DNA of 64,000 nucleotides from Lewinella sp. W8 (GTDB taxonomy: Bacteria; Bacteroidota; Bacteroidia; Chitinophagales; Saprospiraceae), in the NCBI RefSeq assembly GCF_004375085.3, contig NZ_SNAQ03000003.1:248001-312000 (forward strand), in the 5' to 3' direction. The position numbers were made by a program, and so were the translations under genes. This document shows positions 410-54,017 of this stretch, piece by piece (the stretch's first letter is position 1; the number at the start of each line of letters is the position of its first letter). The notes beneath the pieces are model-generated. The model saw only the letters and a list, made by a program, of their open reading frames with translations, was not told where the DNA came from and made no database searches.

Positions 410-545
410 GTGATTTAATTTTTAATGGGAAATTGTAACAGTCAATGGGTCGTTGAAAAGCTTTATCTATAAGTTTAGATTTTAAAGCCAGGGGCAAAAG
501 AGCCAAACAATCGATTTTGCACCGCTAGTCAAAGACAGAAGTAAC

Positions 546-1490
546 TTATTTTCTGGAGTTAGGATCCAAAAAGCCGTTAACTTCCAACCAGTACGTGAAA
601 GCATCAAACCAGCGATTACTGGTGCGGTCGGGGTTGCCCAACCCGAACCCATGACCGCCGTTTTGGTAAAGGTGGAATTCGACGGGAATACCAGCTTTAT
701 ACCAGGATTCTATTACACCAAACTGACCCCGGAACAGAAAATCATCGGTAGCAATCACGCTGAACATCGGCGGTGCATTTTCGGGAACCTCTACTGGGCC
801 CATGCCTCCATAAACTGGTCCAATGAAAGCCAAATCCATAGTTTTGGAATGCAGGGTGGAATGCATCGTGAGACCGGCACCGGCGGAGAAACCAATCATT
901 CCGATCCGGTCAGTATCCACGCCCCACTCGTCGGCCCGATCTACGATCATCTTGTAGGCCGCCTCAGCGTCGGCCAACTGATTGGATAAATCCCACCGTG
1001 GGCGGGGATCCGGAGTTTCCTCTTTATTTGTGTCAGGTTGAGGTACTCCCCGAGGTCGGTTCATCCAGGCAGTGAAATCTTCTAATTTTTCAGCGGTGGG
1101 GTGCAGCCGGTACTTCAGTACAAAGGCGGCGATACCCTGCTCGGCAAGTGCTTCGGCTACTTCCCAACCCTCGTTGCCCAGGGAGAGCCAGTGGAAACCG
1201 CCCCCCGGAGCGACGATTACTGCCGCACCGTTAGCTTTACCCGGTTTTGGCAGGAAAGGGGTAAGCGTAGCAGTTGTAATGTTACGGGCCATTGGGTCCC
1301 CCCATTGCCTAAACCACGACTCTGAGGCTGGTTGATCTTTAACACCACCGGTGCCAAGGAGAATGGCGTTGGGTTCTTCGGGTGCTTCAAGAGGGTAGAT
1401 AGTCCCGTCCTGCGCCGGCAGAATTAGCGCACAAAACAGCAAACATCCCAGCAGGACGGTTTTAAGTTGAAATGAATTTGGATGAATCAC
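546..1490 (-). CDS. Acetylxylan-esterase-like alpha/beta hydrolase
   Basis: A 314-residue secreted serine hydrolase with an N-terminal signal peptide (hydrophobic residues 11-25, cleavage near PAQ). The alpha/beta-hydrolase landmarks are visible. An oxyanion-loop motif PGGGFHWLSLGNEGW sits at 95-109, the nucleophile elbow GFSAG at 200-204 makes Ser202 the nucleophile, an acidic residue lies at ATDD (249-250), and His280 is in NGGHGFG. The pattern matches the esterase/lipase family (COG0657) often annotated as acetylxylan esterase or 'xylanase' in polysaccharide-utilisation clusters. It most likely removes acetyl groups from xylan in the periplasm or outside the cell. It shares strand with the GH9 and GH43 genes, so co-expression is plausible. 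The exact substrate cannot be read from sequence. Confidence 0.8.
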   Translation of the reverse strand: MIHPNSFQLKTVLLGCLLFCALILPAQDGTIYPLEAPEEPNAILLGTGGVKDQPASESWFRQWGDPMARNITTATLTPFLPKPGKANGAAVIVAPGGGFHWLSLGNEGWEVAEALAEQGIAAFVLKYRLHPTAEKLEDFTAWMNRPRGVPQPDTNKEETPDPRPRWDLSNQLADAEAAYKMIVDRADEWGVDTDRIGMIGFSAGAGLTMHSTLHSKTMDLAFIGPVYGGMGPVEVPENAPPMFSVIATDDFLFRGQFGVIESWYKAGIPVEFHLYQNGGHGFGLGNPDRTSNRWFDAFTYWLEVNGFLDPNSRK

Positions 1491-15798: not shown

Positions 15799-18315
15799 AT
15801 GAGTAAGCTACAACTGGACCTCCCCGTCCTCCTACCCCAAATCCTCGATGAGCGCGACCAGTGCGTTACCCGCCTGTTATCCGCCCTTAACGCCGAAAGC
15901 GGTATTGAGAAAGCTCACCTGAAAGAAGGTTCGCCGCCGGAAATTTGCATTCATTACGACCCCGATCAACTTGCCCTGGCGAAGGTCAATGCGATCGCCA
16001 AGCGGGCCGGCGCAGAAATAACTGAACGGTACCATCATCTACTGCTCGACGTAACGGGGATTCGCCACCAGCGCCACGCCCGGCAGCTAGGAAGCCGCAT
16101 AGGAAAGGCAACCGGAATACTGGAAGCCGTTGTTTCCGGGGCCGGCGTCGCCCGCATCGAGTACGATTCAACGCTGACTAACGAGCAGACTGTTCGCGCC
16201 GCCGTGGCGGAAACCGACCTAATTGTCATCGGAACCGCGCAAGCGAGCCCCGACCATGATGATCACGCGGGGCACGATCACGGACCGGGGGAACACGGAA
16301 ATAATAAGAAGGACGATCATGCGGGGCATGACCACGCCCCCGGAGCGCATGGCCATAACCACGATCACGGCGGCATCTTTGGCGAGAATACAGAATTGTA
16401 CTTCGCGATCGGCAGCGGGGTCTTCTGGCTCGTCGGACTTATCCTAAGTTTCCTGGGGAATATCCCTGAAGTAGTTTCAACGGTGCTGTTCGTCATCGCC
16501 ATCCTGCTGGGAGGTTACTTCATTCTTATCGAGGCTATTCAGACCATCCGTCAGGGTAAGTTCGAGATCGACTTCCTGATGCTCGTCGCCGCCGCCGGTG
16601 CCTGCGCGCTGGGCGAGTTCCAGGAAGCCGCCCTCCTGCTGTTCCTCTTCAGCATCGGCCACGCGCTGGAAAACTACGCGATGGGCCGGGCGCGCAAATC
16701 AATCGCCGCCCTCTCCGACCTGGCCCCGCCAACCGCGCTGGTCAAACGTGGCGGCACCACTACCGAAGTCGGGGTCGAGGAACTCGCGGTCGGCGACGTC
16801 ATCGTCGTCCGCCCCAACTCCAAAATCGCGGCCGACGGCGTGATCGTTAGCGGCACCTCCGCCGTCGACCAGGCCCCCATCACCGGAGAAAGCGTCCCCG
16901 TAGATAAGGCACCCCTCGCCAACCCTAACGCGGACGTAGACCTAGATACGCTCCCCGCCGAACACCGCGCCTTCGCTGGCACCATCAACGGTAGTTCCCC
17001 GCTGGAAATCCGGGTACTCAAACTGGCGGGTGACAGTACGCTGTCCCGCCTCGTCACCCTGGTCAAAGAAGCCGAAACCCAGCAGTCCCCCACCCAGCAA
17101 CTTACCGATAAGTTCGAGCGGTATTTTGTCCCTGCCGTCATCGGTCTGGTCTTCCTCCTGCTCTTCGCTTTCCTCGTAATCGACGAGCCGTTCTCCAAAA
17201 GCTTCTACCGCGCCATGGCTGTTCTCGTAGCCGCATCCCCCTGCGCCCTGGCCATCTCCACCCCCTCCGCCGTTCTGGCCGGAGTCGCCCGCGCCGCCCG
17301 CCAGGGCGTCCTTATCAAAGGTGGTCGCCCCCTCGAAGACCTGGGTGGTATCACCGCCCTGGCCTTCGATAAAACCGGCACCCTCACCGAAGGCAAACCC
17401 CGCCTGACCAAAGTGATCCCCGCCGATGGCCTCACCGAAAACGACCTCCTCACCGTAGCCGTTGCCGTCGAGGAACTGAGCGACCACCCCCTCGCCGCCG
17501 CCATCGTCGAAGGCGGTAAGGAACGCCTAAGCACTACGACTACCGTCCCTACCGCCAAGAAGCTCGAAGCCCTCACCGCCCGCGGCGTAAAGGCTACCGT
17601 CAACGGCCAAGCAGTTCACATCGGTAACCGCCGCCTGTTCCGGGAGCTCACCGGGACCGAGATACCCGCCACCATCGACCAGCAAATGGGCGAGCTCGAA
17701 GCCACCGGTAATACCGCCATGATCGTCCACCGGGGAGATACCTACCTCGGCGTCATCGCCGTCATGGACGTCGCCCGCCCCGAAGCCAAAGCCACCCTCG
17801 CCGCCCTCAAAGAAGTCGGCATCCAGAAAATGGTCATGCTCACCGGCGACCACCAAAAGGTAGCCGACGCCGTCGCCGCCGACATCGGCATCACCGACCC
17901 CCTCGGGGGCCTACTCCCCGAAGACAAGGTCGCCGCCATCGAACGCCTACGCGCCGAAGAAGGTATGGTCGCCATGATCGGCGACGGCGTCAACGACGCT
18001 CCTGCCATGGCCAAGTCAAACGTCGGCATCGCCATGGGCGCCGCCGGCTCCGACGTAGCCCTCGAAACCGCCGACGTAGCCCTCATGGCCGACCGGCTCG
18101 ATAACCTTCCCTTCGCCATCGGCCTGAGCCGTAAAGCCAAAGCCATTATCCGGCAAAACCTCGTCATGAGCCTCGGTATGGTCGTTATTCTCATCCCGCT
18201 CACACTGCTCGGTATTGCGGAGATCGGGCCGGCGGTGATTGCGCACGAGGGGTCTACTTTGGTAGTTGTGGGGAATGCGCTGCGGCTACTTGGGTACAAA
18301 GGACCAGGTAAGTAA
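15799..18315 (+). CDS. P1B-4-type heavy-metal ATPase (Co/Zn/Cd exporter)
   Basis: 838 residues. The TM6 motif is SPC (AASPCALA, near residue 479) and TM8 carries HEGST (IAHEGSTLVVVGNALRLL). Both are signatures of the P1B-4 subgroup, linked to Co, Zn, Cd or Fe export. The catalytic motifs are TGES, DKTGT (Asp near 524), the SDHPLA His-Pro pair and GDGVNDAPAMAKS. The N-terminus has two HMA-like folds in which CxxC is missing, then a long His/Asp/Gly linker (about residues 150-193) able to bind divalent ions. That linker is unusual for P1B-4 proteins, which are normally short at the N-terminus. The enzyme acts in the inner membrane, supplying the periplasmic RND system. Confidence 0.9.
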   Translation: MSKLQLDLPVLLPQILDERDQCVTRLLSALNAESGIEKAHLKEGSPPEICIHYDPDQLALAKVNAIAKRAGAEITERYHHLLLDVTGIRHQRHARQLGSRIGKATGILEAVVSGAGVARIEYDSTLTNEQTVRAAVAETDLIVIGTAQASPDHDDHAGHDHGPGEHGNNKKDDHAGHDHAPGAHGHNHDHGGIFGENTELYFAIGSGVFWLVGLILSFLGNIPEVVSTVLFVIAILLGGYFILIEAIQTIRQGKFEIDFLMLVAAAGACALGEFQEAALLLFLFSIGHALENYAMGRARKSIAALSDLAPPTALVKRGGTTTEVGVEELAVGDVIVVRPNSKIAADGVIVSGTSAVDQAPITGESVPVDKAPLANPNADVDLDTLPAEHRAFAGTINGSSPLEIRVLKLAGDSTLSRLVTLVKEAETQQSPTQQLTDKFERYFVPAVIGLVFLLLFAFLVIDEPFSKSFYRAMAVLVAASPCALAISTPSAVLAGVARAARQGVLIKGGRPLEDLGGITALAFDKTGTLTEGKPRLTKVIPADGLTENDLLTVAVAVEELSDHPLAAAIVEGGKERLSTTTTVPTAKKLEALTARGVKATVNGQAVHIGNRRLFRELTGTEIPATIDQQMGELEATGNTAMIVHRGDTYLGVIAVMDVARPEAKATLAALKEVGIQKMVMLTGDHQKVADAVAADIGITDPLGGLLPEDKVAAIERLRAEEGMVAMIGDGVNDAPAMAKSNVGIAMGAAGSDVALETADVALMADRLDNLPFAIGLSRKAKAIIRQNLVMSLGMVVILIPLTLLGIAEIGPAVIAHEGSTLVVVGNALRLLGYKGPGK

Positions 18316-18331
18316 TCGAAGCGTGTGTAAT

Positions 18332-18358
18332 GGGTGGCCGTGTTGGGAGCGGTCACCC
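18332..18358 (+). terminator. Hairpin after the P1B-4 ATPase
   Basis: GGGTGGCCG pairs with CGGTCACCC, with one unpaired position, around a 9-nt loop. It is followed by an AT-rich run without a true T-tract. It could weaken read-through into the second CDF gene. Confidence 0.35.
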
Positions 18359-18386
18359 GCATTAATAATAGACTTAATAACTAACC

Positions 18387-19007
18387 TTGAAACAAGAGAG
18401 AGAAGCGAATTTAAAGGGAGCCAGAACCCTCCAAATTTGGAACGTTCTCTACGACATCGTCGAAGTGATTGTCGCACTGATCGCTGGCATCACCGCCAAT
18501 AGCTCCGCCCTCATCGGCTGGGCGCTGGACAGCACGATTGAAGTGATCAGCGCGGCCACTTTGGGTTGGCGACTACACGGTGAATTACAGGGAATCAGTG
18601 ACGAGAAGGTTGAGCGCCGCAAAAAGATTACCCTCTATGTAATCGCCGCTTCCTTCACCCTGGTCTGTATCTTCATTTCCTACGATTCCATCACAAAAAT
18701 GATTAACCGGGAAACCGCTGAATGGAGCACGCTTGGATTGGTTATTTTGGGCGTTTCGCTGGTCGTTAATCCGATCCTTATCCACTACAAAAGGAAATAC
18801 GGCCATCAACTCGACAGCTCCGAATTGCTTGCCGACGCAAAGGATACCTTTATTTGCTTGTACCAAACGGTGGTGGTTCTTGCCGGCCTGCTCCTGGTCA
18901 ACTGGCTCGGTTGGTGGTGGGCCGATCCAGTTGCAGCCCTGCTCATCGTTCCGTATGCGGCAAAGGAGGGCTGGGAAGCTTATCAAAAGGGAAGGGAAAT
19001 AAGCTAG
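18387..19007 (+). CDS. Compact CDF-type cation transporter
   Basis: 206 residues with a TTG start at 18387; no ATG gives a complete protein. There are five to six membrane segments. The acidic pairs expected of CDF transporters are visible: LDSTIEVISA in the second segment and LADAKDTFICLYQT in the fifth. There is no cytoplasmic metal-binding C-terminal domain and no His-rich loop, so it is smaller than classic CzcD/ZitB. It likely moves divalent cations out of the cytoplasm. It is on the same strand as the upstream ATPase, separated by 71 bp that contain a hairpin. Confidence 0.7.
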   Translation: MKQEREANLKGARTLQIWNVLYDIVEVIVALIAGITANSSALIGWALDSTIEVISAATLGWRLHGELQGISDEKVERRKKITLYVIAASFTLVCIFISYDSITKMINRETAEWSTLGLVILGVSLVVNPILIHYKRKYGHQLDSSELLADAKDTFICLYQTVVVLAGLLLVNWLGWWWADPVAALLIVPYAAKEGWEAYQKGREIS

Positions 19008-19092
19008 GATGGGGCTATTGATGATAGTAGCTTATCTCAAAAATGTAGATTCGTTAACTCCACCGTAAATTCAACTTGCAAAAACCATTGAC

Positions 19093-19473
19093 ATGAAATT
19101 TTTCTGGAAAATGCCCCAAGGTTTGACACCTCATTACCGTTCCGAAATCGAAAAACATCGAAAGGCTCTCTCCGCAGGAAATCTCCCACGCGCCTGGCAA
19201 CACCTGGAACGGGCTCATATACTGGGCCAACCCTGGGCCGTAGAACACTCCGAAGTCCACTGGTTGATGCTTCGTTTCGGCTTTACCATCAAAAGCTGGA
19301 AAGAAATCCGCGGGCAGATACTGCGCCTGGTATTTGGCGGAGTAAAATCCTTTGTCGGTAAAGTTCCCACGGGTAATACCGGAGGAGCCGACGTTCCACC
19401 GCTGCAATCCATGGAGATTCCAGAGGATTTGCAGGAGATGTTGAACCCCTTCTCGCCATCCGTGAAAAGTTAA
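19093..19473 (+). CDS. DUF3703 family protein
   Basis: 126 residues. The segment WQHLERAHILGQPWAVEHSEVHWLMLRFGFTIKSWKEIRGQ, centred on about residues 36-75, matches the DUF3703 core with conserved His residues. The GNTGGADVPPLQSMEIPEDL tail is also conserved in this family. Members commonly sit in heavy-metal resistance operons beside CDF or Czc genes. The His/Glu pattern could suit metal binding, but no function is known. There is no signal peptide, so it is presumably cytoplasmic. It lies 12 bp before the methyltransferase gene, so the two are probably co-transcribed. Confidence 0.8.
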   Translation: MKFFWKMPQGLTPHYRSEIEKHRKALSAGNLPRAWQHLERAHILGQPWAVEHSEVHWLMLRFGFTIKSWKEIRGQILRLVFGGVKSFVGKVPTGNTGGADVPPLQSMEIPEDLQEMLNPFSPSVKS

Positions 19474-19485
19474 AACCAGTTAAGT

Positions 19486-20115
19486 ATGAACATGGCCGAA
19501 TCTTACTACGATAAGTTCTCCCGCGTCTACGACCTCCTCTCCCCAGATTGGTACTACCGCAAACCGCGCAAATTTGCCATTCAGGCATTGGCGCTGGGGG
19601 AAGGGCAAACCGTTCTTAACCTCCCCTGCGGTACCGGCCAAAACTTCCGCTACTTTCAGCAATACCTGAACGGCTCTGGGAAAATAGTCGGCGTCGACCT
19701 CTCTTCCGGGATGCTCCAAAAAGCCCGTGGGAAAATTGCGTCCAATGGTTGGGATAACATCAGCCTTTTCAAAGACGATGCCACCAAGGTCGACGAAAGT
19801 TGGGTCCAGCACCATCTTGGCGAAGGAGTCAAGTTTGACGCTATCCTCTGTGACCTCGGGCTATCCGGATTCCCCGAATGGCGGAATGTCATCGATAACC
19901 TTCTTCCCCTCTTACGGCCAGGCGGAAGGTTTGTCATCATGGACTGGTATATCGAGCAGCCTGGTCTGCGCGCGGAATTCATCAAATGGATCGGGGGTGG
20001 TGAGGTGGACCGGCAGCTTTATCAGTATTTGGCGGAACGGGTAGACAGTTTTCAGTTGGAGGACTCATTTAAAGGGGGGGATGTATTTGTGGCTTTTGGG
20101 AAAAAGCCAAAATAG
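19486..20115 (+). CDS. Class I SAM-dependent methyltransferase
   Basis: 209 residues with a Rossmann-type methyltransferase fold. Motif I is LNLPCGTGQNF (about 46-56), an acidic residue at the end of beta-2 is VGVDLSSGM, and motif IV is DAILCDLGLS. The GMLQKAR helix is typical of UbiE/COQ5-like and small-molecule methyltransferases. The gene is the last of the divalent-metal operon, 12 bp after the DUF3703 gene. A metal- or metalloid-methylation role would fit the context, but the conserved Cys set of ArsM arsenite methyltransferases is not visible. The substrate therefore stays unknown. Confidence 0.75.
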   Translation: MNMAESYYDKFSRVYDLLSPDWYYRKPRKFAIQALALGEGQTVLNLPCGTGQNFRYFQQYLNGSGKIVGVDLSSGMLQKARGKIASNGWDNISLFKDDATKVDESWVQHHLGEGVKFDAILCDLGLSGFPEWRNVIDNLLPLLRPGGRFVIMDWYIEQPGLRAEFIKWIGGGEVDRQLYQYLAERVDSFQLEDSFKGGDVFVAFGKKPK

Positions 20116-20262
20116 TTTTCTGTATTTTATTCTACATACCGTCGTAGCATTTTGTCGACAACACTCATGTTGGGTTTATGGATCTAATCGTCTCACTTAT
20201 AGTCAAGGTCTCAACTCCTAAGCTCTCTCCCCGTTCAATCTCATACCGATTAACACCCCGGC

Positions 20263-20772
20263 ATGAAACTAGACTTAAGCGAAATATCAAATTGGGCCGA
20301 ATTTGAAGATTTGTCAGCGGCTTACTTTCGTGAAGTAAGCCAGCGGAACGACAATCAGCTCTCTGAAGTAATTGTAGAACCATCTGGACTAGGTCCGGAT
20401 GGAGGACGAGATATCCTTTTAAAGTTCCGTCTTCACGACTCTATCTATTCTTTTGAACGTAAGTGGGTCGTACAGTGTAAATTTTACAACAAGCCCGTGA
20501 CTAAATCGGTGTTATCCACAGTCAATATTCCAACGTTGATCCACGAATATGGTGCTGATGGTTACTTGCTTATCACCAATATTACTCCTACTTCAGGGGT
20601 AACCAATATGTTTGAGAATTTAGGGCAAAGGTGCAAATTTCGTTATTCGTACATGATTTGGGACAGCTCAGTCTTTGTGCAAAATTTACGCATGATGCCA
20701 AATCTGATCGAGCAGTATTTCCCAAGCTACCAGTTGTTTTTAGACCAGAAAAAACGGAAGTATAACATATGA
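20263..20772 (+). CDS. Mrr-like restriction endonuclease domain protein (defence candidate, gene 1)
   Basis: 169 residues, cytoplasmic. The N-terminal helix WAEFEDLSAAYF (with Glu15), then PSGLGPDGGRD (Asp50) and WVVQCKFYNK (Gln71-x-Lys73), give the D...QxK variant of the PD-(D/E)XK site seen in Mrr-type and type IV restriction enzymes. A later strand YLLITN is also typical. No DNA-binding domain is attached, so targeting probably comes from the partners. Its stop overlaps the next ATG by 4 bp. Base composition is visibly more AT-rich than in the metal genes on either side, suggesting separate acquisition. The predicted activity is DNA cleavage, inferred from the motif only. Confidence 0.7.
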   Translation: MKLDLSEISNWAEFEDLSAAYFREVSQRNDNQLSEVIVEPSGLGPDGGRDILLKFRLHDSIYSFERKWVVQCKFYNKPVTKSVLSTVNIPTLIHEYGADGYLLITNITPTSGVTNMFENLGQRCKFRYSYMIWDSSVFVQNLRMMPNLIEQYFPSYQLFLDQKKRKYNI

Positions 20773-21242
20773 AAGTCTTCCTATCATACTCACTCAATGA
20801 TGCCAAGGAATTTGTAGTTCCGCTAATCACGAGTGTGCTACAGCAAAAAGGTTTTACCGTCGTCGGCAGCTACTACTTGGCAACTGGGGTATATGACAAA
20901 TACACCTCTGAACAAATACGTACCTCTAACTTATTTATCGGGATACTAACCCTGCATGGTACCCAAAATGGTGAGGTCTACCAAGAGTGGGGCGTTGCTC
21001 TGAAAGCCAGAATTCCCGCAGTACTACTCATTGATGACCGACTGCCAGCGTACGACCCTAAGTTAGAGAGTCACCCCAACGTCCTCCGTTATAATTCGGC
21101 CAACCCCCACCCTGCTATTAGTCGTGTTCGACTTAATATGGAACCTGCAAAAAAAGATAAAACAGCAGTTGAAGAAGCTGCTCCTTGGGTTCTGGGTGGA
21201 ATCGCCCTCATCACATTACTTAAGCTACTAGGAGATGAATAA
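20769..21242 (+). CDS. TIR-like / nucleoside-deoxyribosyltransferase-like membrane-anchored protein (defence candidate, gene 2)
   Basis: 157 residues. The start MKVFLSYSLNDAKEFVVPLITSVL is a TIR/flavodoxin-like first strand and helix. The later GEVYQEWGVALKARIPAVLLIDD resembles the Glu-bearing helix and strand of TIR NADases and nucleoside 2-deoxyribosyltransferases, with Glu69 and Glu73 as candidates. Residues 138-154 (PWVLGGIALITLLKLL) form one C-terminal membrane helix, placing the domain in the cytoplasm. TIR-like proteins in bacterial defence degrade NAD or make nucleotide signals. Which applies here is open. It is translationally coupled to the upstream nuclease gene. Confidence 0.65.
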   Translation: MKVFLSYSLNDAKEFVVPLITSVLQQKGFTVVGSYYLATGVYDKYTSEQIRTSNLFIGILTLHGTQNGEVYQEWGVALKARIPAVLLIDDRLPAYDPKLESHPNVLRYNSANPHPAISRVRLNMEPAKKDKTAVEEAAPWVLGGIALITLLKLLGDE

Positions 21243-21283
21243 ATCTTAGGCGCCCTTGAATCTCCTTCCTGATACATATATTC

Positions 21284-24200
21284 ATGTCAAACAAACTAGG
21301 TAGAAACTCAAAATGCCCTTGTGGCAGTGGACAAAAATATAAACATTGCTGCTTAAAAAAAGGCATTAAGTTTGAGCGGAGTGAAGAAGCTCACGAGGAC
21401 AACAAAGAAGAAGACATACTATCATCTTTCTTTAGGAATTATTCTAGTATCGATACCGCTCTTACCATCTCAGCAGCAGCGCTTGCCCCAGCTAATCATG
21501 GTAAAGAAGTAAGACTTGATTATTTAGTATACCAAGCATTGAAACATGGAAGTGCTGAACATTCAAAAGGCGATGTTACACTGCTACGCGAGTTTACCGC
21601 AAAGCATTACCCATCATGCAGTTTAGAAGATCCTCCCGACTCCCTATTTACAGAAAATATCGTTTCAAGCCTTGGAAATACCACAGTCTATAACGGAAAT
21701 TTCATTAACGGAGGGTTCGTAGTGTCCCATCTGGTAAGGGCCGTTGATTACTTGGGTGGTGGCCTTCCTGTAAAGTTTGTCGAAATAGCAAGTGCTTCTT
21801 ACCGCCTGATGCTCGCGCTATCTAACATTGTAGCTAGTAAAGCTAACCAAGAGGCAAACCATTTTGGAGGCTACTATGAAAGTGATACTCCGATATTTTT
21901 TCCGGAAAACATAGATGAGCTCAAAGAGAGCTTGTTTTTTAGTAGAGAAAGAATTGAAAGTTTGATGGAGGAATTGAGTGTACCTTCCGAAGTCCTTAAT
22001 GTTTTTTTGACTCGGTCAGAAGACTTAGAGAAAAGTATAACTCTAGGAGATCAAAAAAATCCTTTATACTTAAGGCCTTTGGTTGTTGTGAACAGATGGA
22101 TTTTTTTAGCGCCACCAGGATCTATTCTATCAGCCTTAACCCATTTTATTTGGTCTAAAGCTAAACGTGCTGGGTGCCTCACGGCACTTGTACAACTGTA
22201 TCATATTGAAGTCTGGAAAACCGTAAATGTTTCACTGTTCAAAATGGGCCTTCTACCAGAGCCAATACCGGAAGAATGGAACTGTCCGGACTTCACATCG
22301 CCTACCGGATTGTTTAGAGCAGATGTTGATAAAATAGTGATTGCTGTACTTCTACCAGACATTGGTACTTCGTATGACGAAACACATATGGGGCATTTTG
22401 CTCCAGAAGGCATGATGAAGGAAGCTGCCTCTGGAGCTCTTAAATTGTTAAAAATTGCTAGTGAGAAACTCCCCTCTAATGATGTTGCAGTCATATATAT
22501 ACCCTCTGGTATTGGCCGTATGCTTAGCGTTAGTTACGAAAAAACAGCTGGAATAGAAGCGATGATCTCTCCTCGGGACTTGTTTGCCATCTCAAATAGT
22601 GAAGATCACGAGCAGCTATCATTTTGGTATTTTTTAGAGGCATGGAATCTTCTACAGTCTACAACTCAATTACAACCACTTGCTAATGTAACAGATTTTT
22701 ATGATCAATACAGAGACTTAAAATCGTTCTATTTTGGCGATGGGGCAAGGCCTGAATCAATCTTTCTAATAACAGGCACACTTGAAGTGGTTAGAGACGC
22801 AATTCTAAACACGGACGAACGAGCGGCACACAAGTTGATTCCAGAACACCCTGATCCTGTCATCCTCACGGTCAAGAAAGATGGAAATATAATTCCACGA
22901 TATTTTTCGATGGACCTTTTGAAGAGAGGCTTGTACTTTTTTCTGGCAGACTATCCAGTTGACCTGTGGATTTGCTGCAACAGGCTATCAGAAGACATGG
23001 GGTCAGCCAAACAAACATTCTGGCAGTTTTCGGAGGCAATCTGCTACTGGATGTGGGTGGTCCAAAGCGAATTGAAAAAAGACCTAAGCGTAATCACCAA
23101 GCCCACAATTTCAATCGATTTCGATTTGGAAGATATCCCATTATTTATGGATGAGGATACAAGGCTATCGCCTTCTCCTGAAATTTCGGACATAGTAAAG
23201 TTTCAGGTTACTCCGGAAAGTGTACTAATGGTCATCTCGGGGAAGGTTTCCGGCGCTCTAACTTCAGCGGATAACTCGGCAGAAAGAGAAATTCTTCGGT
23301 TACTATTAATGGCCATTGGACAATTGATCACTGAGAATGGTAGTATAAATACCCTTTCTTCTGAAAGAGTAGCAACCATTGTTGATCGGTCATTACCACT
23401 GGGTAAAAAGAAAATGATTATCGCTAGTTACACTTTTGACAACTATGCATTAAACCCGATAGGCGTAAAGTCAAAAGTTAGGTATCTGCAAGAAAGTAGA
23501 GAACAAATTCAGCTAGACAAACAACTAAGTTATCTTAACGATAGCACCCGACCGCCAATCGGTCCGGTAAAGGAAAAGAGAGAGCTAGCCGCAAATTTAA
23601 GCAGGGCATTCGTCAGTCCTCTTAAAGAATTAATAAGTCCATATGATACTAAGGCACTTTTGTCATATCTAATGGAAAACTACGATTCATTACTACATAA
23701 GGCCGCAGTTATACAGTTACAACTCCCCTCCCGGTTAGCTTGCTTTGAAGGGATAGAGGATACCGTATCGTCCCTGCTCAAAGAAGTCAATCGGTCCGAT
23801 AGTACGAGCTTGGCAACAAGGTGTTTGATAGAATTCATAGCTGCGGAACAGAAAAAAGGAGGGAAGAGAGAAGTTAGCATCCAAGTAGTCGATGATGCAT
23901 TAGCAATGATGTCACTCATCATTCTATGGGGGTCTACTGGAGACCAGGTCTTCCATAAATTATTCGATGTAGAGCTTTCGATCCTTGAATCTGGAAGAAT
24001 TGGAACAAATACGGAGCAAATAGCGGAGAGTTTTTTTAGACTCTATAAAGGAGCAAAAATCACTGGCTTCATGGAGCAAACGGATGAAGACTATCCAAAC
24101 TATTTTGGAGAGATAGAACCTGCAAGCGCAAAGCCGGTCCCTGCTAATCTAAATAAGGCTTTTGCTGAAGAGGCAGGAATACCTCTTGATAAATTAGGCG

Positions 24201-25099
24201 GGTTAATGCTTTCTTTAGCTGAGTATTCCCTCTCTAAAAACGAGTTGCTCACTGAGATGAAAAAGGAAGATATCCTACAACTCTTTTTGACAAATCCTGA
24301 GTCGTCAATAACCAAAGAAGAAATTTTATCTGGCTTGGATTTTTTAACGCTTACGTGTAGAGGAGAAGCAATGTCGAAACCTCCAGGTTTTGAGTACGCC
24401 GATATTCTTCCCTGGGGCTTCAACCGTAGGCTTAGCTACTTACAGCGTCCTATCATAGCATGGGAGACTGATAATGATCCGCTCTTGATGTGGACACCTC
24501 GTCATCTTGCTAGAGCATGGGAGTTCTTGAATTCCCTACTCTTATCAGACCGCTATAAAAGTACCGAAGGAGGCCCACTGCACAGTATTTTATCGAAAAG
24601 GGCAAAATCACGTGCTGCCACTGTAATATTAGGCGTTAAAGAATGGATAAAGACTGAGGATAATATCATAGTCGATACTGATGTATGGATTAAGCCAAAA
24701 GGTAAATTGAAACACACTGAAGATATCGGAGACTGCGATGTTCTGCTCATTGATCAAACCCGTCAGGTTATTTTCTCCATCGAATGTAAGAGAACCCATC
24801 CTGCTGGCAATACTCAGGAAATGGTAAATGAAGTGAAGACTTACTTTGGTGGAAAATCAGAGAACGGATACTTTAGCAAGCATATACGTCGAGATAAATG
24901 GTTGAAAAACAACTTAGAAAAAGTAGGGAAGGTTTACCAGGTCAATACTACTGGCTACATGGTAATCTCTCTTTTTCTTACGTATGAACCTCTCTCAATT
25001 CAGTTTATGACAATGCGAAAAACGCCGCTCCCTTTATTATCTCTTCCTGAACTGAGAAGGAAAACATATCAGGAGTTTTACGAAGGGTTAATAGAATGA
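21284..25099 (+). CDS. Giant SEC-C / PD-(D/E)XK nuclease-like protein (defence candidate, gene 3)
   Basis: 1271 residues. The first 25 residues hold a SEC-C zinc motif (LGRNSKCPCGSGQKYKHCC; Cys11, Cys13, His21, Cys22/23). About 1100 residues of mixed alpha/beta sequence follow with no family I recognise and no P-loop that I can see. Near the C-terminus DIGDCDVLLID (Asp1152) and FSIECKRTHP (Glu1167-x-Lys1169) form a D...ExK site of the PD-(D/E)XK type, followed by a helical segment. The gene is 41 bp after the TIR-like gene, and the three form a clear operon ending just before convergent metal genes. It could be a sensor-effector protein. Function is inference. Confidence 0.7.
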   Translation: MSNKLGRNSKCPCGSGQKYKHCCLKKGIKFERSEEAHEDNKEEDILSSFFRNYSSIDTALTISAAALAPANHGKEVRLDYLVYQALKHGSAEHSKGDVTLLREFTAKHYPSCSLEDPPDSLFTENIVSSLGNTTVYNGNFINGGFVVSHLVRAVDYLGGGLPVKFVEIASASYRLMLALSNIVASKANQEANHFGGYYESDTPIFFPENIDELKESLFFSRERIESLMEELSVPSEVLNVFLTRSEDLEKSITLGDQKNPLYLRPLVVVNRWIFLAPPGSILSALTHFIWSKAKRAGCLTALVQLYHIEVWKTVNVSLFKMGLLPEPIPEEWNCPDFTSPTGLFRADVDKIVIAVLLPDIGTSYDETHMGHFAPEGMMKEAASGALKLLKIASEKLPSNDVAVIYIPSGIGRMLSVSYEKTAGIEAMISPRDLFAISNSEDHEQLSFWYFLEAWNLLQSTTQLQPLANVTDFYDQYRDLKSFYFGDGARPESIFLITGTLEVVRDAILNTDERAAHKLIPEHPDPVILTVKKDGNIIPRYFSMDLLKRGLYFFLADYPVDLWICCNRLSEDMGSAKQTFWQFSEAICYWMWVVQSELKKDLSVITKPTISIDFDLEDIPLFMDEDTRLSPSPEISDIVKFQVTPESVLMVISGKVSGALTSADNSAEREILRLLLMAIGQLITENGSINTLSSERVATIVDRSLPLGKKKMIIASYTFDNYALNPIGVKSKVRYLQESREQIQLDKQLSYLNDSTRPPIGPVKEKRELAANLSRAFVSPLKELISPYDTKALLSYLMENYDSLLHKAAVIQLQLPSRLACFEGIEDTVSSLLKEVNRSDSTSLATRCLIEFIAAEQKKGGKREVSIQVVDDALAMMSLIILWGSTGDQVFHKLFDVELSILESGRIGTNTEQIAESFFRLYKGAKITGFMEQTDEDYPNYFGEIEPASAKPVPANLNKAFAEEAGIPLDKLGGLMLSLAEYSLSKNELLTEMKKEDILQLFLTNPESSITKEEILSGLDFLTLTCRGEAMSKPPGFEYADILPWGFNRRLSYLQRPIIAWETDNDPLLMWTPRHLARAWEFLNSLLLSDRYKSTEGGPLHSILSKRAKSRAATVILGVKEWIKTEDNIIVDTDVWIKPKGKLKHTEDIGDCDVLLIDQTRQVIFSIECKRTHPAGNTQEMVNEVKTYFGGKSENGYFSKHIRRDKWLKNNLEKVGKVYQVNTTGYMVISLFLTYEPLSIQFMTMRKTPLPLLSLPELRRKTYQEFYEGLIE

Positions 25100-25110
25100 A
25101 GATGCCTTGG

Positions 25111-25509
25111 TCAAGACCTATGTGGATTCATACTCCTCATACTCCAGTACAACCACCCCGCCAATCCCAAATCCACCACCACGCAGTACAACTCATACCC
25201 ATCCGGAATAACCGGTCCAGCAACCATGTAGAGGTATCCCAAATCCCAAGCAGCATGTAGCACAAGGCCCAGTGGAATCAATAGCGGATTCTTCCGCAAC
25301 CCACCGTAAGCTAGCAACCAAATAACCAAAGCCTGAACACTATTGACAATAAGTAAAGCGGTGTCACTCTCAGAAAAACCTACGTAAATGAACCCAATCG
25401 CCGTGAGCATCAAGCTACCGGCAGTCACTGTGTCGAGACGCAGCAATTCTATTGCACCAGCGATTACGCCAACGGTGATTAGACCAAGAAGAAGAATTGA
25501 AATTGTCAT
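25111..25509 (-). CDS. DUF6010-like small membrane protein
   Basis: 132 residues with four to five membrane segments. The conserved-looking features are HAAWDLGYLYM (His/Trp/Asp) and GYELYCVVVDLGLAGWLYW near the C-terminus, which resemble the DUF6010 family. No catalytic motif is evident. It lies 32 bp downstream of copA on the same strand and is probably carried on the same transcript. It is convergent with the defence block. Its link to copper is positional only. Confidence 0.55.
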   Translation of the reverse strand: MTISILLLGLITVGVIAGAIELLRLDTVTAGSLMLTAIGFIYVGFSESDTALLIVNSVQALVIWLLAYGGLRKNPLLIPLGLVLHAAWDLGYLYMVAGPVIPDGYELYCVVVDLGLAGWLYWSMRSMNPHRS

Positions 25510-25541
25510 GCGAGAAGTAACTTTTGTACCATGATGAGCAC

Positions 25542-27797
25542 CTACAACGAGGCAGACTTCAACCGTAAACTGTTAGCCACCACAGAAACGGAGCTCAACG
25601 CCATCGCTCCGCCTGCAATCATGGGATCGAGTAAAAAGCCATTGATTGGGTAGAGCAGTCCGGCGGCAATTGGAATGCCGATCAGATTATAAATGAAAGC
25701 CCAGAACAGGTTCTGACGGATGCCACGAACGGTTAATTTAGAAAGTCGGAGTGCTTTCGGAATTGCCGACAAGTCAGAAGTGATCAGCGTCATCTTGGCA
25801 ACGTCCATCGCAATGTCCGAGCCTTTCCCCATAGCTATACTTACGTCCGCCTGCGCCAGTGCGTGAGAATCATTGATGCCGTCGCCGACCATGGCCACTA
25901 CCCTACCATCGGCTTGCAGTCGCTCCACGAAGGCGGCTTTATCGGCCGGTAACACCTCGGCGCGGAAGTCCTTTAGCCCCACCTCTTTTGCGACGGCGGC
26001 GGCGGTCTGCTCGTTGTCTCCGGTCAGCATGTATACATCGATCCCCCGCTCCTGAAGCGTTGCAATTGCGCTACGGGAACTATCCTTGATCCGGTCGGCG
26101 ATAGCTATAATACCTAGCACGTTTCGTTCATTGGCTACATATATTACAGTATTCGCGGCCTCGCGTAATTTTTGGGCGCGGTCGCGGGTGCCGGGGGAGG
26201 TTGTAAGGCCGTGTTCGTTCATCAGCCGTTCATTGCCGACGTAGTAGGTTGTCCCTTCGTAACTGGCGCTGATCCCTCGGCCTGTAATACTGGTGAAATC
26301 ATCAAGGGCTACCGGTTTTGTCCCGGCTTCTTTTAACCAGGCAGTCACGGCTTCAGCAAGGGGGTGCTCGGACTTAGCTTCCGCCGCCAGCACCACGCTC
26401 TTCCAACCTTCCACTGCACCTGCGTCCGCGCCCGCTTCCCAATATTCTTTCGTCACGTTGGGTCTCCCCTCCGTAATCGTCCCGGTTTTGTCCAGTACGA
26501 TCGCGTCTACTTTATGACCTAGTTCCAGGCTCTCCGCGTCCTTGATCAGGATGTTATTTTCAGCCCCCTTGCCTATGCCGACCATGATCGCCGTCGGAGT
26601 CGCCAAACCCAGCGCGCATGGGCAGGCAATGATCAAAACCGCTACGCTGGTCAGTAAAGCGTGAGTGAAAGCATCCTCGCCACCCAGCACCATCCAGCTG
26701 ATGAAAGTGACCACCGCAATAACCATCACAATCGGAACGAATATGCCCGCAATCTTATCCACCAATTTCTGCACTGGTGCCTTGCTCCCCTGCGCCTGCT
26801 GCACCATCTTGATAATCTGCGCCAGTAAGGTCGCTCCCCCTACTTTCTCAGCAACGAACCGGAAACTACCCTTCTGATTAACCGTCCCCGCGAACACCGC
26901 TTCACCCTTGGCTTTGCGCACCGGCACCGGCTCCCCGGTAATCATACTTTCGTCAACAAAGCTATTTCCGTCCAGCACCTGACCGTCAACGGGTATTTTC
27001 TCTCCAGGTCGTAACAGTAACAACTGCCCCGTAGTGACGTCCGCAATCGCCATCTCTACCTCTTCTCCATCGACGATCGCTTTGACCGTCTGTGGTTGCA
27101 ATCCAATCAGTTTCTTGATTGCCGAAGACGTATTTGACTTTGCCCGCTCTTCGAGCAATTTACCGAGGGATATGAACGTGATGATCACCGTCGCCGCTTC
27201 GTAATAAACGTGGGGTTCCAGTCCCTGCCGCAGCCAGAACGCCGGATTCAGGGTGTTGAAAAGGCTGAACAGAAAAGCAATCCCCGTACTCAGCGCTACC
27301 AAGGTGTCCATGTTAGCCTGACCGTGACGAGCCTGTTTCCAGGCGTTAACGTAGAAGTGGCGACCAAACCAAAATAGAACCACCGAGGCGAGCCCCAGGC
27401 TTATCCACCGCCCCGCAGGCCAATCCATATAGAACATCCCGATAATGAAAACGGGAAGCGTGAGGATGGCTGACCATATCGTACGCTGCCTGATTTCCGC
27501 GTACTCCCGCTGTTTTATTTCTTCCTGAACCGCCGAAGGATCTTCTACATCTACAATCAGGTCATAACCGACCGCCTGAAGAGCGTTCCTCAATTCATTT
27601 GTTGTTATTTTACCATGGTCGAAATCTACCAGCGCGGTCGTATTGGCAAAATTGACGCTTACGTCGTTTACACCCGGTAATTTCTTGAGGATACTCTCAA
27701 CGCTGGAAGCGCAGCCGGCGCAACTCATTCCCGTGACCGGAAAGGATGCTTTTTCTGTAGATATTATACTTTTATCGTGATCGGTAACTACACTCAT
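25542..27797 (-). CDS. copA: CopA-type Cu(I)-exporting P1B-1 ATPase
   Basis: 751 residues. One N-terminal HMA domain has GMSCAGC (Cys26, Cys29), followed by eight membrane segments. The TM6 motif is CPC ([12 protein letters not shown], near 390), the P1B-1 signature for Cu(I)/Ag(I). The phosphorylation loop DKTGT lies near 434, with TGEP in the actuator, SEHPLA and [10 protein letters not shown]. The enzyme pumps Cu(I) from cytoplasm to periplasm. [10 protein letters not shown] replaces the usual GDGINDAPAL, a change also seen in some Bacteroidota copies. The gene precedes the DUF6010-like gene and follows the CopB-type ATPase on the same strand. Confidence 0.93.
26415..26433 (-). repeat. Dispersed 20-bp motif, copy c (inside copA)
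   Basis: On the minus strand this reads GGGCGCGGACGCAGGTGCA, encoding GADAGA within the nucleotide-binding domain. This is the same peptide as copy f in cusB. Confidence 0.75.
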
Positions 27798-48488: not shown

Positions 48489-48551
48489 GTTTGGGTATAG
48501 TTAGGGGTGAAGCCGAAAGGAGTTCTTTCGCCGTTCCTGAAAATCATTGTC

Positions 48552-49574
48552 ATGCCACAACATCTAAAACGATCCTCCGATAGCCGTGTCCAGAAGTCCA
48601 ACCTTCTGGTTGACGCCAGGTACAAACTCAACATGTGGGAAACCCGCATCTTCATCAAGATGATCATGATGATCGATCACACCGACGAAGACAATAAGGA
48701 GTACCATATATACCCACGTGACATTATTAACGATTTTCAGCTGTTTACCGATAAGTCGGCCTACCGGTACATCCGTGAAGCCGCCGACTCGCTGCGTAAC
48801 CGCTCCATCACCTTTCCGGAGACGACCGAGAACGGAGATGTCTACGAGGTCAACACCAGCATCCTGACGGTTACCAAGAAGAAGATCAAAGGTAAACCGG
48901 ACGCTTTTATTAAGGTTAAGTTCGCTGCGGAACTAAAGCCTTACTATAAGGACGCTGACGGGAAGACCTTAAAACCACAACAAGCGGAGGCCTTTAGCAA
49001 GGCGGGAAAGGTTGTTCAGGTAATACCGATGCCTCGTACTTTTCACCTGTTCAACGTGGCGGACATCGATGGTATCGATTTCGAGTTTCCGGAGATCAAA
49101 GAGAACCCTAATAGTCCCATTCAGCAGTGCGACGATTTCGTGGCCACTTTCCACCAAGCTCCCGAGGTGCTCCATGATAACCTCGATGAAGCCTTCTACA
49201 GCGTCACCTACGACCGCATTAACATGCCACCACTACCGCGTTTTCACGCGCCGGAAGCCTACTATAAAACGCTCTTCCACGAGATGACCCATGCTACCGG
49301 TAGCGCCGGACGGCTGAAACGTCCCGGCATCACCCTTCCCCAGGAGCAGCGGCGTCCCGGCTCTGCTCCTTACGCCCTGGAGGAACTTACCGCCGAACTA
49401 GGGGCTGCCTATCTTTGCCAGATCGCTGGTATCAGCAGTCAGCCACTGGAAGAAAACGCGGCGGCTTATCTCGAGGGCTATCTCACGCATCTGCGGAAGG
49501 ATAAGAAGTTCTTGTTTCAGGCGGCTTCGGCGGTGCAGAAGGCGGTAGATTTCTTGCTCAAGGAAAAAGACTAG
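48552..49574 (+). CDS. Chimeric Rep_3 plasmid initiator / ArdC zincin protein
   Basis: The start was taken at ATG 48552. A GTG at 48507 is also in frame. 340 residues. Residues 1 to about 130 match the first winged-helix half of Rep_3 (RepB-like) plasmid replication initiators (NLLVDARYKLNMWETRIFI, DKSAYRYIREAADSL). The second half of Rep is missing. From about 131 the sequence is the metallopeptidase half of ArdC-type antirestriction proteins. It reads YYKDADGK, HLFNVADIDGID, then the zinc motif HEMTH (243-247) with the downstream EELTAELGAAYL. The ssDNA-binding half of ArdC is absent. A deletion seems to have fused two plasmid genes in frame. Activity is doubtful. Confidence 0.75.
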   Translation: MPQHLKRSSDSRVQKSNLLVDARYKLNMWETRIFIKMIMMIDHTDEDNKEYHIYPRDIINDFQLFTDKSAYRYIREAADSLRNRSITFPETTENGDVYEVNTSILTVTKKKIKGKPDAFIKVKFAAELKPYYKDADGKTLKPQQAEAFSKAGKVVQVIPMPRTFHLFNVADIDGIDFEFPEIKENPNSPIQQCDDFVATFHQAPEVLHDNLDEAFYSVTYDRINMPPLPRFHAPEAYYKTLFHEMTHATGSAGRLKRPGITLPQEQRRPGSAPYALEELTAELGAAYLCQIAGISSQPLEENAAAYLEGYLTHLRKDKKFLFQAASAVQKAVDFLLKEKD

Positions 49575-53600: not shown

Positions 53601-53999
53601 GGGTACCGAACGCAGGCTTTCTCCCCGCTCGCGGCGGGGATTGTGGGTGGTGTTATCCTCCAGGAGGTTTGCGTACAGCCGACGGAGCCTTAGGTAGGCC
53701 CCCGGGTCCAGTTGGAGCACCAGGCCCTCCTGGGTCACCGCCGTGCCACCGGGTTGCATCAGGCTGACGGGCAGATTGTAGGGGGTACCACCGCCAACCT
53801 TGTGTACCAGCCCCCCAAAGGGTGCCAGCCAGTTAGCGCTGCTTTGCAGTTGCATGTTCTGGCGACTGTAAGTGATTTGTCCGCTGATGTCCGCCTGTGC
53901 CACGTCAACCCACCGCCGGCTGAAGCGTGGGAACGTCAGGCCGAAGGGTTGCAGCTGAAAATTATCGAGTCCTTGCCGGATGAGGGTTTCGCCTAGCAT
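50700..53999 (-). CDS. Giant unknown protein with degenerate phospholipase-D-like domain (module gene 3)
   Basis: 1099 residues, no signal peptide, no membrane helix. About 800 residues of beta-rich, Pro/Gly-rich sequence without recognised family come first. Residues about 815-985 then resemble a PLD fold: LWALEEGIQSARNFIYLETPALG and LKLMICVPKVPEY, then NTQTVIIDDQWMLTGSTTMRRRG. In active PLD enzymes the last block carries HxKxxxxD. Here the His and Lys are missing, so catalysis by the standard mechanism is unlikely. It is the third gene of a tight minus-strand set (18 bp after its neighbour). High GC like the flanking giant genes. Confidence 0.6.
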   Translation of the reverse strand: MLGETLIRQGLDNFQLQPFGLTFPRFSRRWVDVAQADISGQITYSRQNMQLQSSANWLAPFGGLVHKVGGGTPYNLPVSLMQPGGTAVTQEGLVLQLDPGAYLRLRRLYANLLEDNTTHNPRRERGESLRSVPNYFFIEGSFPGSQLGGQIDVGEDIGMSGNLTIYDEQGHPIDPLSVASALLALAGEHEVLLADDSAPDQLTAINDLETNGSFLVRLVRRNGTPYDGTNLMENLESTGAFTAQGIFPAAAFSGTDTTILREINRKAGTGNSGDFPDAQARLLMVGAAAYGRLSNRVRLPALPGGVTLKHDFFTLEVLDLTTYLTGTPDAAFNGSKIEPKPIIRLHDHIQLLSSGNDVMGGLSAIVEGSPDDALLVGETIEEDFTLPPDLATTQWPDFPALPGGLTATMEDSLPPNLRAELIEHSTAAFIDEGQPVDVNVLLTLTGLPVGAAVRAYHRRLGTDFTEERGDGAGGTVGTEVAALSGRTYNGLLVLRLEDPLGLEVTPGNFVAAVEPQLNVDLVVVLRNGTRRIYGNVQLPISTTAVADTTTPVDNGLRDVARRGIGHAGLVGLPGPTVNLPASPSAEDLLNAALQAMGETNPIGRDAPRLPLMLRREILAGSRRGTNWRGLISGSRVDRSLHTAEPRRGAPGSPGSRETQSTGLYTQHGRLAYTLARHALRRTESFYTRLPILVDDTNWGEPAEPTALAIGTDQTADAGPFASVVLQTISPNAETPELALLKSLVDGNINSIPTSFDALVDQLKAWVNSLNVGSLPGVLGTGVTRLRTEVVNWLEQQKDGNALSESQRERLYSEVLRELSTACYGRRDSLWALEEGIQSARNFIYLETPALGPVRYGTAGNEYSRDVLKMIQDRMNEVPALKLMICVPKVPEYDRRYHPLRKKEIAERFKLFVATTSGSSTTTPLLRDDRTVVFHPMGFPGRPSGLNTQTVIIDDQWMLTGSTTMRRRGLTFDGGTDVALTGFDRVGGKVTAIRDHRVALLQQRLQLERSNKTTLAGSNQARLRDGRAAFTLIREMLRADGYGLIERLWDGKDPHIAYTEPTMDENIWNPEGQTYSAGIATLVSWLLSQGSGSTTVFHDV

Positions 54000-54017
54000 A
54001 ATGAAGCACTTGGGATT

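What the first reader, a model, noticed from the sequence alone, without database searches (positions are those of the whole stretch)
20263..25099. Candidate undescribed antiphage system: Mrr-like nuclease, membrane-anchored TIR-like protein, giant SEC-C/PD-(D/E)XK protein
Three genes overlap or nearly touch (4-bp overlap, then 41 bp). The first has a GGRD...QCK nuclease site, the second a TIR/deoxyribosyltransferase-like fold with a C-terminal membrane helix, and the third a SEC-C zinc motif plus a C-terminal D...ECK site around about 1100 unassigned residues. Nuclease plus TIR-like plus large sensor is a common layout for bacterial defence, but I do not recognise this exact combination. The block sits inside a mobile-looking resistance island.
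Basis: partly seen in the sequence, partly recalled or inferred. Interest (0 to 1): 0.8.

Follow-up and report, generated by a model that had tools for sequence, protein, structure and literature searches.

The report
Diverged Upx antiphage nuclease beside TIR
The giant protein is a distant, zinc-knuckle-bearing relative of a known single-gene bacterial antivirus nuclease called Upx, and the two small genes in front of it look like local companions rather than parts of a conserved three-gene machine.

Summary
One undescribed three-gene system is not supported. The 1271-aa protein is homologous over its length to the described antiphage protein Upx: PADLOC and NCBIfam Upx models hit, a profile-profile match covers 1181 columns (E 1.3e-88), and a confident AlphaFold model (pLDDT 87) matches PDB 9wuf, "Cryo-EM structure of Upx", over 1102 residues (Z 33.9). 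It is a diverged variant (123 bits against NCBI's cut-off of 1900), in a mainly Bacteroidota clade where 19 of 22 proteins carry an N-terminal SEC-C knuckle. Its C-terminal PD-(D/E)XK residues are intact. In 56 other Upx-family loci no phmmer relative of ORF1 or ORF2 was detected; one locus has another Mrr-type neighbour and another a SEFIR/TIR neighbour. ORF1 is an Mrr_cat nuclease. ORF2 is TIR-like with a borderline C-terminal membrane helix. All three share a low-GC block (41% against 51-58%) inside a metal-resistance region, so they may have arrived together. Verdict: a known kind of defence gene in a new variant, with two probable defence neighbours.

The parts
20263..20772 (+). ORF1, 169 aa, Mrr-type PD-(D/E)XK nuclease (GGRD 47-50, QCK 71-73)
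   Evidence: Pfam Mrr_cat 6.4e-7, residues 10-110; PADLOC PDC-M58A 5e-9; residue positions
20769..21242 (+). ORF2, 157 aa, TIR-like protein with a hydrophobic C-terminal helix (about residues 133-155)
   Evidence: Pfam TIR_2 1.2e-5, 26.2 bits, under the cut-off of 28; hydropathy 1.74; the single-sequence model is too poor to use, mean pLDDT 39.8
21284..25099 (+). ORF3, 1271 aa, Upx-family antiphage protein with an added N-terminal SEC-C
   Evidence: PADLOC Upx 7.7e-28; NF042954 Upx_antiphage 4.9e-36; model pLDDT 87.1 matching 9wuf Upx, Foldseek E 5.6e-45, TM 0.74, Z 33.9 over 1102 residues
21302..21355 (+). SEC-C zinc-knuckle motif, ORF3 residues 7-24
   Evidence: Pfam SEC-C 2.8e-7; by my motif pattern present in 19 of 22 members of this clade and 0 of 33 other rows of the tree
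22178..22723 (+). Internal restriction-enzyme-like domain of ORF3, about residues 299-480, probably degenerate
   Evidence: Model residues 244-425 align with nickase Nt.BspD6I, Z 10.7-11.0; D347 kept in 44 of 46 sequences, with no conserved (D/E)xK after it in the stretch inspected
24722..24790 (+). Catalytic core of the C-terminal PD-(D/E)XK nuclease of ORF3 (D1147, D1150, D1152, E1167, K1169)
   Evidence: D1150, D1152, E1167 and K1169 in 46 of 46 aligned sequences, window included, D1147 in 45 of 46; model residues about 1051-1200 match nuclease domains of EndoMS, McrC, Card1 and Can2, Z 7-9
20116..25110 (.). Low-GC block holding the three genes
   Evidence: 41.4% GC over 20263-25099 against 58.1% and 50.7% on either side; profile; exact ends not determined

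Best explanation
ORF3 is a diverged, SEC-C-bearing member of the wider Upx family: a large single-protein antiphage nuclease. Shown by computation: full-length homology, a common predicted fold with Upx, and intact C-terminal PD-(D/E)XK residues. Inferred: the roughly 1000-residue body recognises an infection-associated feature, a degenerate internal restriction-enzyme-like domain (model residues 244-425) helps to hold nucleic acid, the SEC-C knuckle adds a binding contact, and recognition releases the C-terminal nuclease to cut DNA, stopping the phage or killing the cell. ORF1 (Mrr-type nuclease) and ORF2 (probably membrane-anchored TIR protein, probably using NAD+) are two further defence-type genes in the same low-GC block, possibly co-transcribed with ORF3, but not part of a conserved machine.
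For: Upx models match colinearly, residues 540-1223. Profile-profile match of 15 SEC-C rows (window included) with 7 near-Upx rows: probability 100, E 1.3e-88, 1181 columns; L083 of the second set scores 1574.6 bits to NF042954 over positions 1-1240. Model against PDB 9wuf: E 5.6e-45, TM 0.74/0.74, Z 33.9 over 1102 residues; the alignment profile finds the 9wuf sequence at E 7.9e-261, ORF3 alone at 2.4e-15. D1150, D1152, E1167 and K1169 in 46 of 46 sequences. In 40 of 52 other Upx-family genes of at least 900 aa no same-strand ORF of 90 aa or more lies within 100 bp upstream, so the gene mostly stands alone (ORF starts are mechanical). No ORF1 or ORF2 relative at E <= 0.1 in 56 other loci. Neighbours of some relatives match Dsr2, Avs2, type I and type IV restriction, E1-E2 and bSEFIR models. 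PMC10855318 lists Upx under nucleic acid degradation (table passage seen).
Against: ORF3 scores 123.4 bits against NCBI's equivalog cut-off of 1900, so it is far from the Upx that model describes and could have another target or trigger. Many loci were picked by a pattern that holds D-x-G-D-x-D-V, so conservation of D1147, D1150 and D1152 is partly imposed; E1167 and K1169 are not in either pattern. ORF1 and ORF2 overlap, ORF2 ends 41 bp before ORF3, and no + strand terminator-like site lies between the three, so a joint function in this genome cannot be excluded. Two SEC-C-clade relatives do have a Mrr_cat or SEFIR/TIR neighbour. No activity was measured.
Confidence: 0.8

Rival explanations
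1. The three genes form one expanded Upx system: ORF3 senses and cuts, ORF2 (membrane TIR) depletes NAD+ or makes a signal, and ORF1 is a second nuclease, giving a layered response.
For: 4-bp overlap and 41-bp gap, same strand, same low-GC block. Two relatives in the SEC-C clade have partly similar neighbours: L049 (one of the six closest) has an Mrr_cat gene (2.5e-11) about 265 bp downstream, and L055 a SEFIR/TIR gene (1.6e-15) about 30 bp downstream.
Against: Neither neighbour is a detectable relative of ORF1 or ORF2: best phmmer E in 56 other loci is 0.24 for ORF1 (that L049 gene) and 0.45 for ORF2. They occur in different loci. Among 68 hand-picked neighbour proteins from 42 other loci, one TIR_2 and one Mrr_cat protein turned up (which lists 25 of 63 families).
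Confidence: 0.12
2. ORF1 and ORF2 are a separate two-gene defence unit (TIR enzyme plus nuclease effector, working like a TIR-signalling system) in front of a solo Upx gene. This is compatible with the best explanation of ORF3.
For: Overlapping stop and start. One other Bacteroidota-phylum genome has a PDC-M58A-type Mrr protein (L134 2245-3939) followed 410 bp on, same strand, by a SEFIR/TIR protein (L134 404-1834). ThsB1 is among ORF2's very weak hits (0.058).
Against: ORF1 is 169 aa and shows no ligand-binding domain beside the nuclease. No homologous ORF1-ORF2 pair was seen. ORF2 had no match at E <= 0.001 in 197 other genomes of the order; in 325 others of the phylum 3 matched at E <= 0.01, the best (1.1e-6, residues 3-119) being a 484-aa TIR_2/FGE-sulfatase protein.
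Confidence: 0.3
3. ORF1 and ORF2 are lone or decaying cargo genes with no joint role. Also compatible with the best explanation of ORF3.
For: No conserved partner found for either. The seven ORF1 relatives found by phmmer outside Upx loci are parts of longer ORFs, 244-1387 aa, so a stand-alone 169-aa copy could be a remnant.
Against: Both are open and keep their motif residues and overlap neatly. A stand-alone 190-aa Mrr_cat ORF exists elsewhere (L131 3923-4495).
Confidence: 0.4

Closest known systems
Upx (PADLOC PDLC02221; NCBIfam NF042954; PDB 9wuf)
   Same: Length, full-length colinear homology, overall predicted fold, C-terminal PD-(D/E)XK residues, mostly single-gene layout
   Different: 16% identity to 9wuf in the structural alignment, far below NCBI's cut-off, and an N-terminal SEC-C that none of the 13 rows of the near-Upx clade shows by my motif pattern; whether 9wuf's own N-terminus has one was not tested
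Mrr_cat restriction endonucleases and candidate PDC-M58A
   Same: ORF1 matches both models and has the GGxD...QxK site
   Different: ORF1 is short and stands alone; the seven phmmer relatives outside Upx loci are in longer ORFs, though a 190-aa Mrr_cat ORF exists in L131
TIR_2 proteins / Thoeris ThsB
   Same: ORF2 has a TIR-like N-terminal part with a candidate catalytic Glu, E73 (its role is recalled from TIR biology, not tested)
   Different: Just under the Pfam cut-off, ThsB similarity only 0.058, a C-terminal hydrophobic helix, and no ThsA match in ORF1 or ORF3
bSEFIR beside a Upx-family gene in Chryseobacterium (L055)
   Same: A TIR/SEFIR-type gene next to a SEC-C Upx-family gene
   Different: 484-aa bSEFIR protein (2.8e-99), downstream, not a detectable phmmer relative of ORF2

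Membership tests
Upx (wider family) | Full-length homology to Upx | tested here: met
   hhalign probability 100, E 1.3e-88, 1181 columns against 7 near-Upx proteins; 9wuf sequence E 7.9e-261 with the profile, 2.4e-15 with ORF3 alone
Upx (wider family) | Same overall fold as the solved Upx | tested here: met
   Predicted model: TM 0.74/0.74; Z 33.9, 1102 aligned, rmsd 5.3
Upx (wider family) | Intact C-terminal PD-(D/E)XK site | tested here: met
   D1150, D1152, E1167, K1169 present in ORF3 and in 46 of 46 sequences; D residues partly imposed by the search pattern
Upx equivalog as NCBI defines it (NF042954) | Score of at least 1900 bits | tested here: not met
   123.4 bits; hence filed as a variant of the wider family, not as an NF042954 equivalog. 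None of 7 other genomes or records holding relatives reached it either, best 1574.6
Upx (wider family) | Protects cells against phage | not testable with these tools
   No assay possible
Mrr-type restriction nuclease (ORF1) | Mrr_cat domain above the curated cut-off with D...QxK site | tested here: met
   29.9 bits against 21; D50, Q71, K73
TIR domain (ORF2) | TIR_2 above the curated cut-off | tested here: inconclusive
   26.2 bits against 28, E 1.2e-5
Thoeris | TIR ThsB plus a ThsA effector | tested here: not met
   ThsB1 0.058 for ORF2; no ThsA match at E <= 1 in ORF1 or ORF3; other genes of the genome not scanned
A conserved three-gene system | ORF1, ORF2 and ORF3 relatives recur together | tested here: not met
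   No ORF1 or ORF2 relative at E <= 0.1 in 56 other Upx-family loci, one of them (L104) a second copy of L041; loci are 5-20 kb and flanks vary

The most novel reading that the evidence does not exclude
A SEC-C-bearing Upx variant that in this lineage has recruited a membrane TIR protein and an Mrr nuclease as dedicated partners, giving a layered NAD+/DNA response from one transcript.
Probability: 0.1. Interest if true: 0.55.

Novelty: new variant of a known kind. Interest (0 to 1): 0.3.

Why it matters
It shows that Upx, which I recall as known from few tested examples, belongs to a broad and deeply diverged family found here in Bacteroidota, Actinomycetota, Chloroflexota, Pseudomonadota, archaea and others. 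One clade carries an extra zinc knuckle. NCBI's equivalog cut-off misses ORF3 and the relatives in the 7 genomes or records tested. The invariant residues and the internal degenerate nuclease-like domain give testable handles on how Upx works. The three-gene-system claim should not be carried forward without an experiment.

Tried and rejected
ORF3 as a single sequence found no relatives in genome contigs; alignment A2 then found 48 loci. In the first phylum search 125 of 395 genomes matched, but only the own genome, G351 and G306 matched beyond the first 81 residues; the other rows cover an N-terminal stretch with the SEC-C and were not counted as Upx. With A2 (SEC-C removed) 7 of 395 genomes of the class matched at E <= 1e-6, own genome included.

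Phage records gave no match for ORF3. Viral contigs gave none with A4 or with ORF1 and ORF2; those scans use a few short peptide patterns and are insensitive. Plasmids: 5 records for ORF3, 4 weak ones for ORF1, 0 for ORF2. A Salmonella plasmid piece of a Upx-like gene had no match in E. coli genomes. PDB sequences gave nothing useful for ORF1 or ORF2. The single-sequence model of ORF2 was not used. The BFVD search gave nothing at E <= 0.001. A similarity of model residues 464-654 to M1 aminopeptidases (Z about 7-9) is in the range the tool warns about; I drew nothing from it. Empty site: the left-flank methyltransferase was found in 1 of 60 other genomes of the family, beside metal genes but without the window's right flank in the 7.4-kb contig, and the right-flank DUF6010 gene in 0 of 60 others, so the block's ends stay undefined. 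No convincing repeat frames it, and no Rfam family reaches its threshold in 18000-27000. The ORF1 hit L093 looks spurious: it lies opposite a likely real gene. The DUF3198/1x9b similarity of the ORF1 tail is below its cut-off; ignored.

Literature: the first report of Upx (Gao et al. 2020, recalled) is not held. Listings showed no paper on a SEC-C Upx or on this trio; two searches listed only 20 of 199 and 12 of 3,294 papers, so this is a limited look. I read only passages on Upx in PMC10855318 and PMC12629846.
Full report
What is there. Three + strand ORFs lie at 20263-20772, 20769-21242 and 21284-25099, with a 4-bp overlap and a 41-bp gap. The block is 41.4% GC against 58.1% on the left and 50.7% on the right, and GC at third codon positions is 0.37-0.44 in the three genes against 0.50-0.73 in the eleven other window genes compared. 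A terminator-like site follows the gene to the left (20090-20109); none on the + strand lies between the three ORFs, and one lies inside ORF3 at 22368-22393. Such sites are hardly above chance (7 found, 4.0 expected, sd 2.2). So the three genes look like one low-GC stretch, possibly one insertion and one transcript, in a metal-resistance region. The host is probably a member of class Bacteroidia: a genome called 'same class' (G351) has a contig of the same length and content as SDWH01000033.1, 'Bacteroidales bacterium SW299' (inference).

The large protein. Pfam sees only SEC-C, but PADLOC (Upx, 7.7e-28) and NCBIfam (NF042954 Upx_antiphage, 4.9e-36) match residues 540-1223 to positions 545-1233 and 529-1206 of their models. 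With an alignment I found 48 loci in public genomes, 7 of 395 genomes of the class including its own, and 5 plasmid records with ORF3 alone. An AlphaFold model of residues 56-1255 on 46 sequences is confident (pLDDT 87.1, pTM 0.88). Its best match is 9wuf, 'Cryo-EM structure of Upx' (released 2026-02-11): Foldseek E 5.6e-45, TM 0.74 both ways, Z 33.9 over 1102 residues at 16% identity. The next Foldseek match has E 0.027. The family profile finds the 9wuf sequence at E 7.9e-261. A profile of 15 SEC-C rows, the window's included, against 7 near-Upx rows gives probability 100 and E 1.3e-88 over 1181 columns. ORF3 is therefore a Upx-family protein, but at 123.4 bits it is far below NCBI's cut-off of 1900.

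Where it sits in the family. A quick tree of 55 proteins puts ORF3 in a group of 22 (support 98) made of Bacteroidota or window-class genomes plus one Methanosarcina and one Helarchaeota protein; 19 of the 22 have the SEC-C by my motif pattern and none of the other 33 (the first 60 residues were left out of the tree). The label needs 4 changes, against 15.9 in shuffles. The near-Upx group (13 rows, with L083 at 1574.6 bits to NF042954) lies on the other side. The tree is a short search with long branches, uneven residue make-up in 45 rows and one support measure, so finer order is unsure.

Likely mechanism. D1150, D1152, E1167, K1169 and R1203 are kept in 46 of 46 sequences and D1147 in 45. 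The D positions belong to one of the two patterns used to find the loci, so their invariance is partly built in; E1167, K1169 and R1203 are not. The domain resembles nuclease domains of EndoMS, McrC, Card1 and Can2 (Z 7-9, partly in the range the tool calls common). A second restriction-enzyme-like domain lies at model residues 244-425 (Nt.BspD6I, Z 10.7-11.0), where D347 is kept in 44 of 46 but no conserved (D/E)xK follows in the stretch inspected: probably a degenerate, binding copy (inference). I infer a sensor-nuclease that cuts DNA on infection. The trigger is unknown.

The two small genes. ORF1 is an Mrr_cat nuclease (29.9 bits, cut-off 21) and matches the candidate PDC-M58A. Four of 325 other genomes of the phylum have a PDC-M58A match at E <= 1e-5 (0 of 14 control genomes), and in the order 4 of 197 others have a weak ORF1 match at E <= 0.01. 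ORF2 is TIR-like (26.2 bits, cut-off 28) with a borderline C-terminal membrane helix. In 197 other genomes of the order it has no match at E <= 0.001; in 325 others of the phylum there are 3 matches at E <= 0.01, all in frames of 460 aa or more.

Do they belong together? In 56 other Upx-family loci (one a second copy) the best phmmer matches were E 0.24 for ORF1 and 0.45 for ORF2. An earlier scan of the six-frame ORFs of loci L031-L088 agrees: at E <= 1 only the window and the own-genome locus L035 matched. Pfam on 68 hand-picked neighbour proteins from 42 other loci gave one Mrr_cat (L049, Niastella) and one TIR_2 (L055, Chryseobacterium, a bSEFIR protein) (one search lists 25 of 63 families). 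Both loci are in the SEC-C clade, which keeps the rival alive, but they are different loci and not detectable relatives of ORF1 or ORF2. In 40 of 52 cases no same-strand ORF of 90 aa or more lies within 100 bp upstream; in the other 12 the upstream gene varies and in one it is another Upx-family gene. Named neighbours of some relatives include Dsr2, Avs2, type I and type IV restriction and E1-E2 matches, so at least some sit among defence genes; I did not count defence neighbours per locus. PMC12629846 reports Upx almost only in one island hotspot in its Pseudomonas PAGI-1 set (passage).

Verdict. Interest is moderate to low: useful for mapping the Upx family, not a new kind of system.

Noticed in passing
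L048 4291-7947 and 7953-11669; L062 4420-8157 and 8988-12746: Two Upx-family genes side by side, 5 bp apart in a Pyrinomonadaceae genome and 830 bp apart in a Chitinophagaceae genome.
   Followed up: no
window 22178-22723: Second, apparently degenerate restriction-enzyme-like domain inside the Upx-family protein, resembling nickase Nt.BspD6I.
   Followed up: partly
window 48507-49574: One gene joins a Rep3_N plasmid initiator part to a zincin-like MPTase-PolyVal part, a hint of a plasmid or integrated element.
   Followed up: no
window 50700-57239: Two neighbouring large - strand genes (1099 and 1073 aa) with no Pfam family at E <= 0.001; a 2221-aa ORF follows at 57243-63908, not scanned.
   Followed up: no
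window 502-598: ARAGORN calls a tRNA-Pyl with anticodon cta, probably a false positive.
   Followed up: no
L134 404-3939: An Mrr-type protein (PDC-M58A match) followed by a SEFIR/TIR protein on the same strand in another genome of the phylum.
   Followed up: partly
L044, L052: Upx-family genes in a Methanosarcina and a Helarchaeota genome grouping with the Bacteroidota proteins, suggesting transfer between domains.
   Followed up: no
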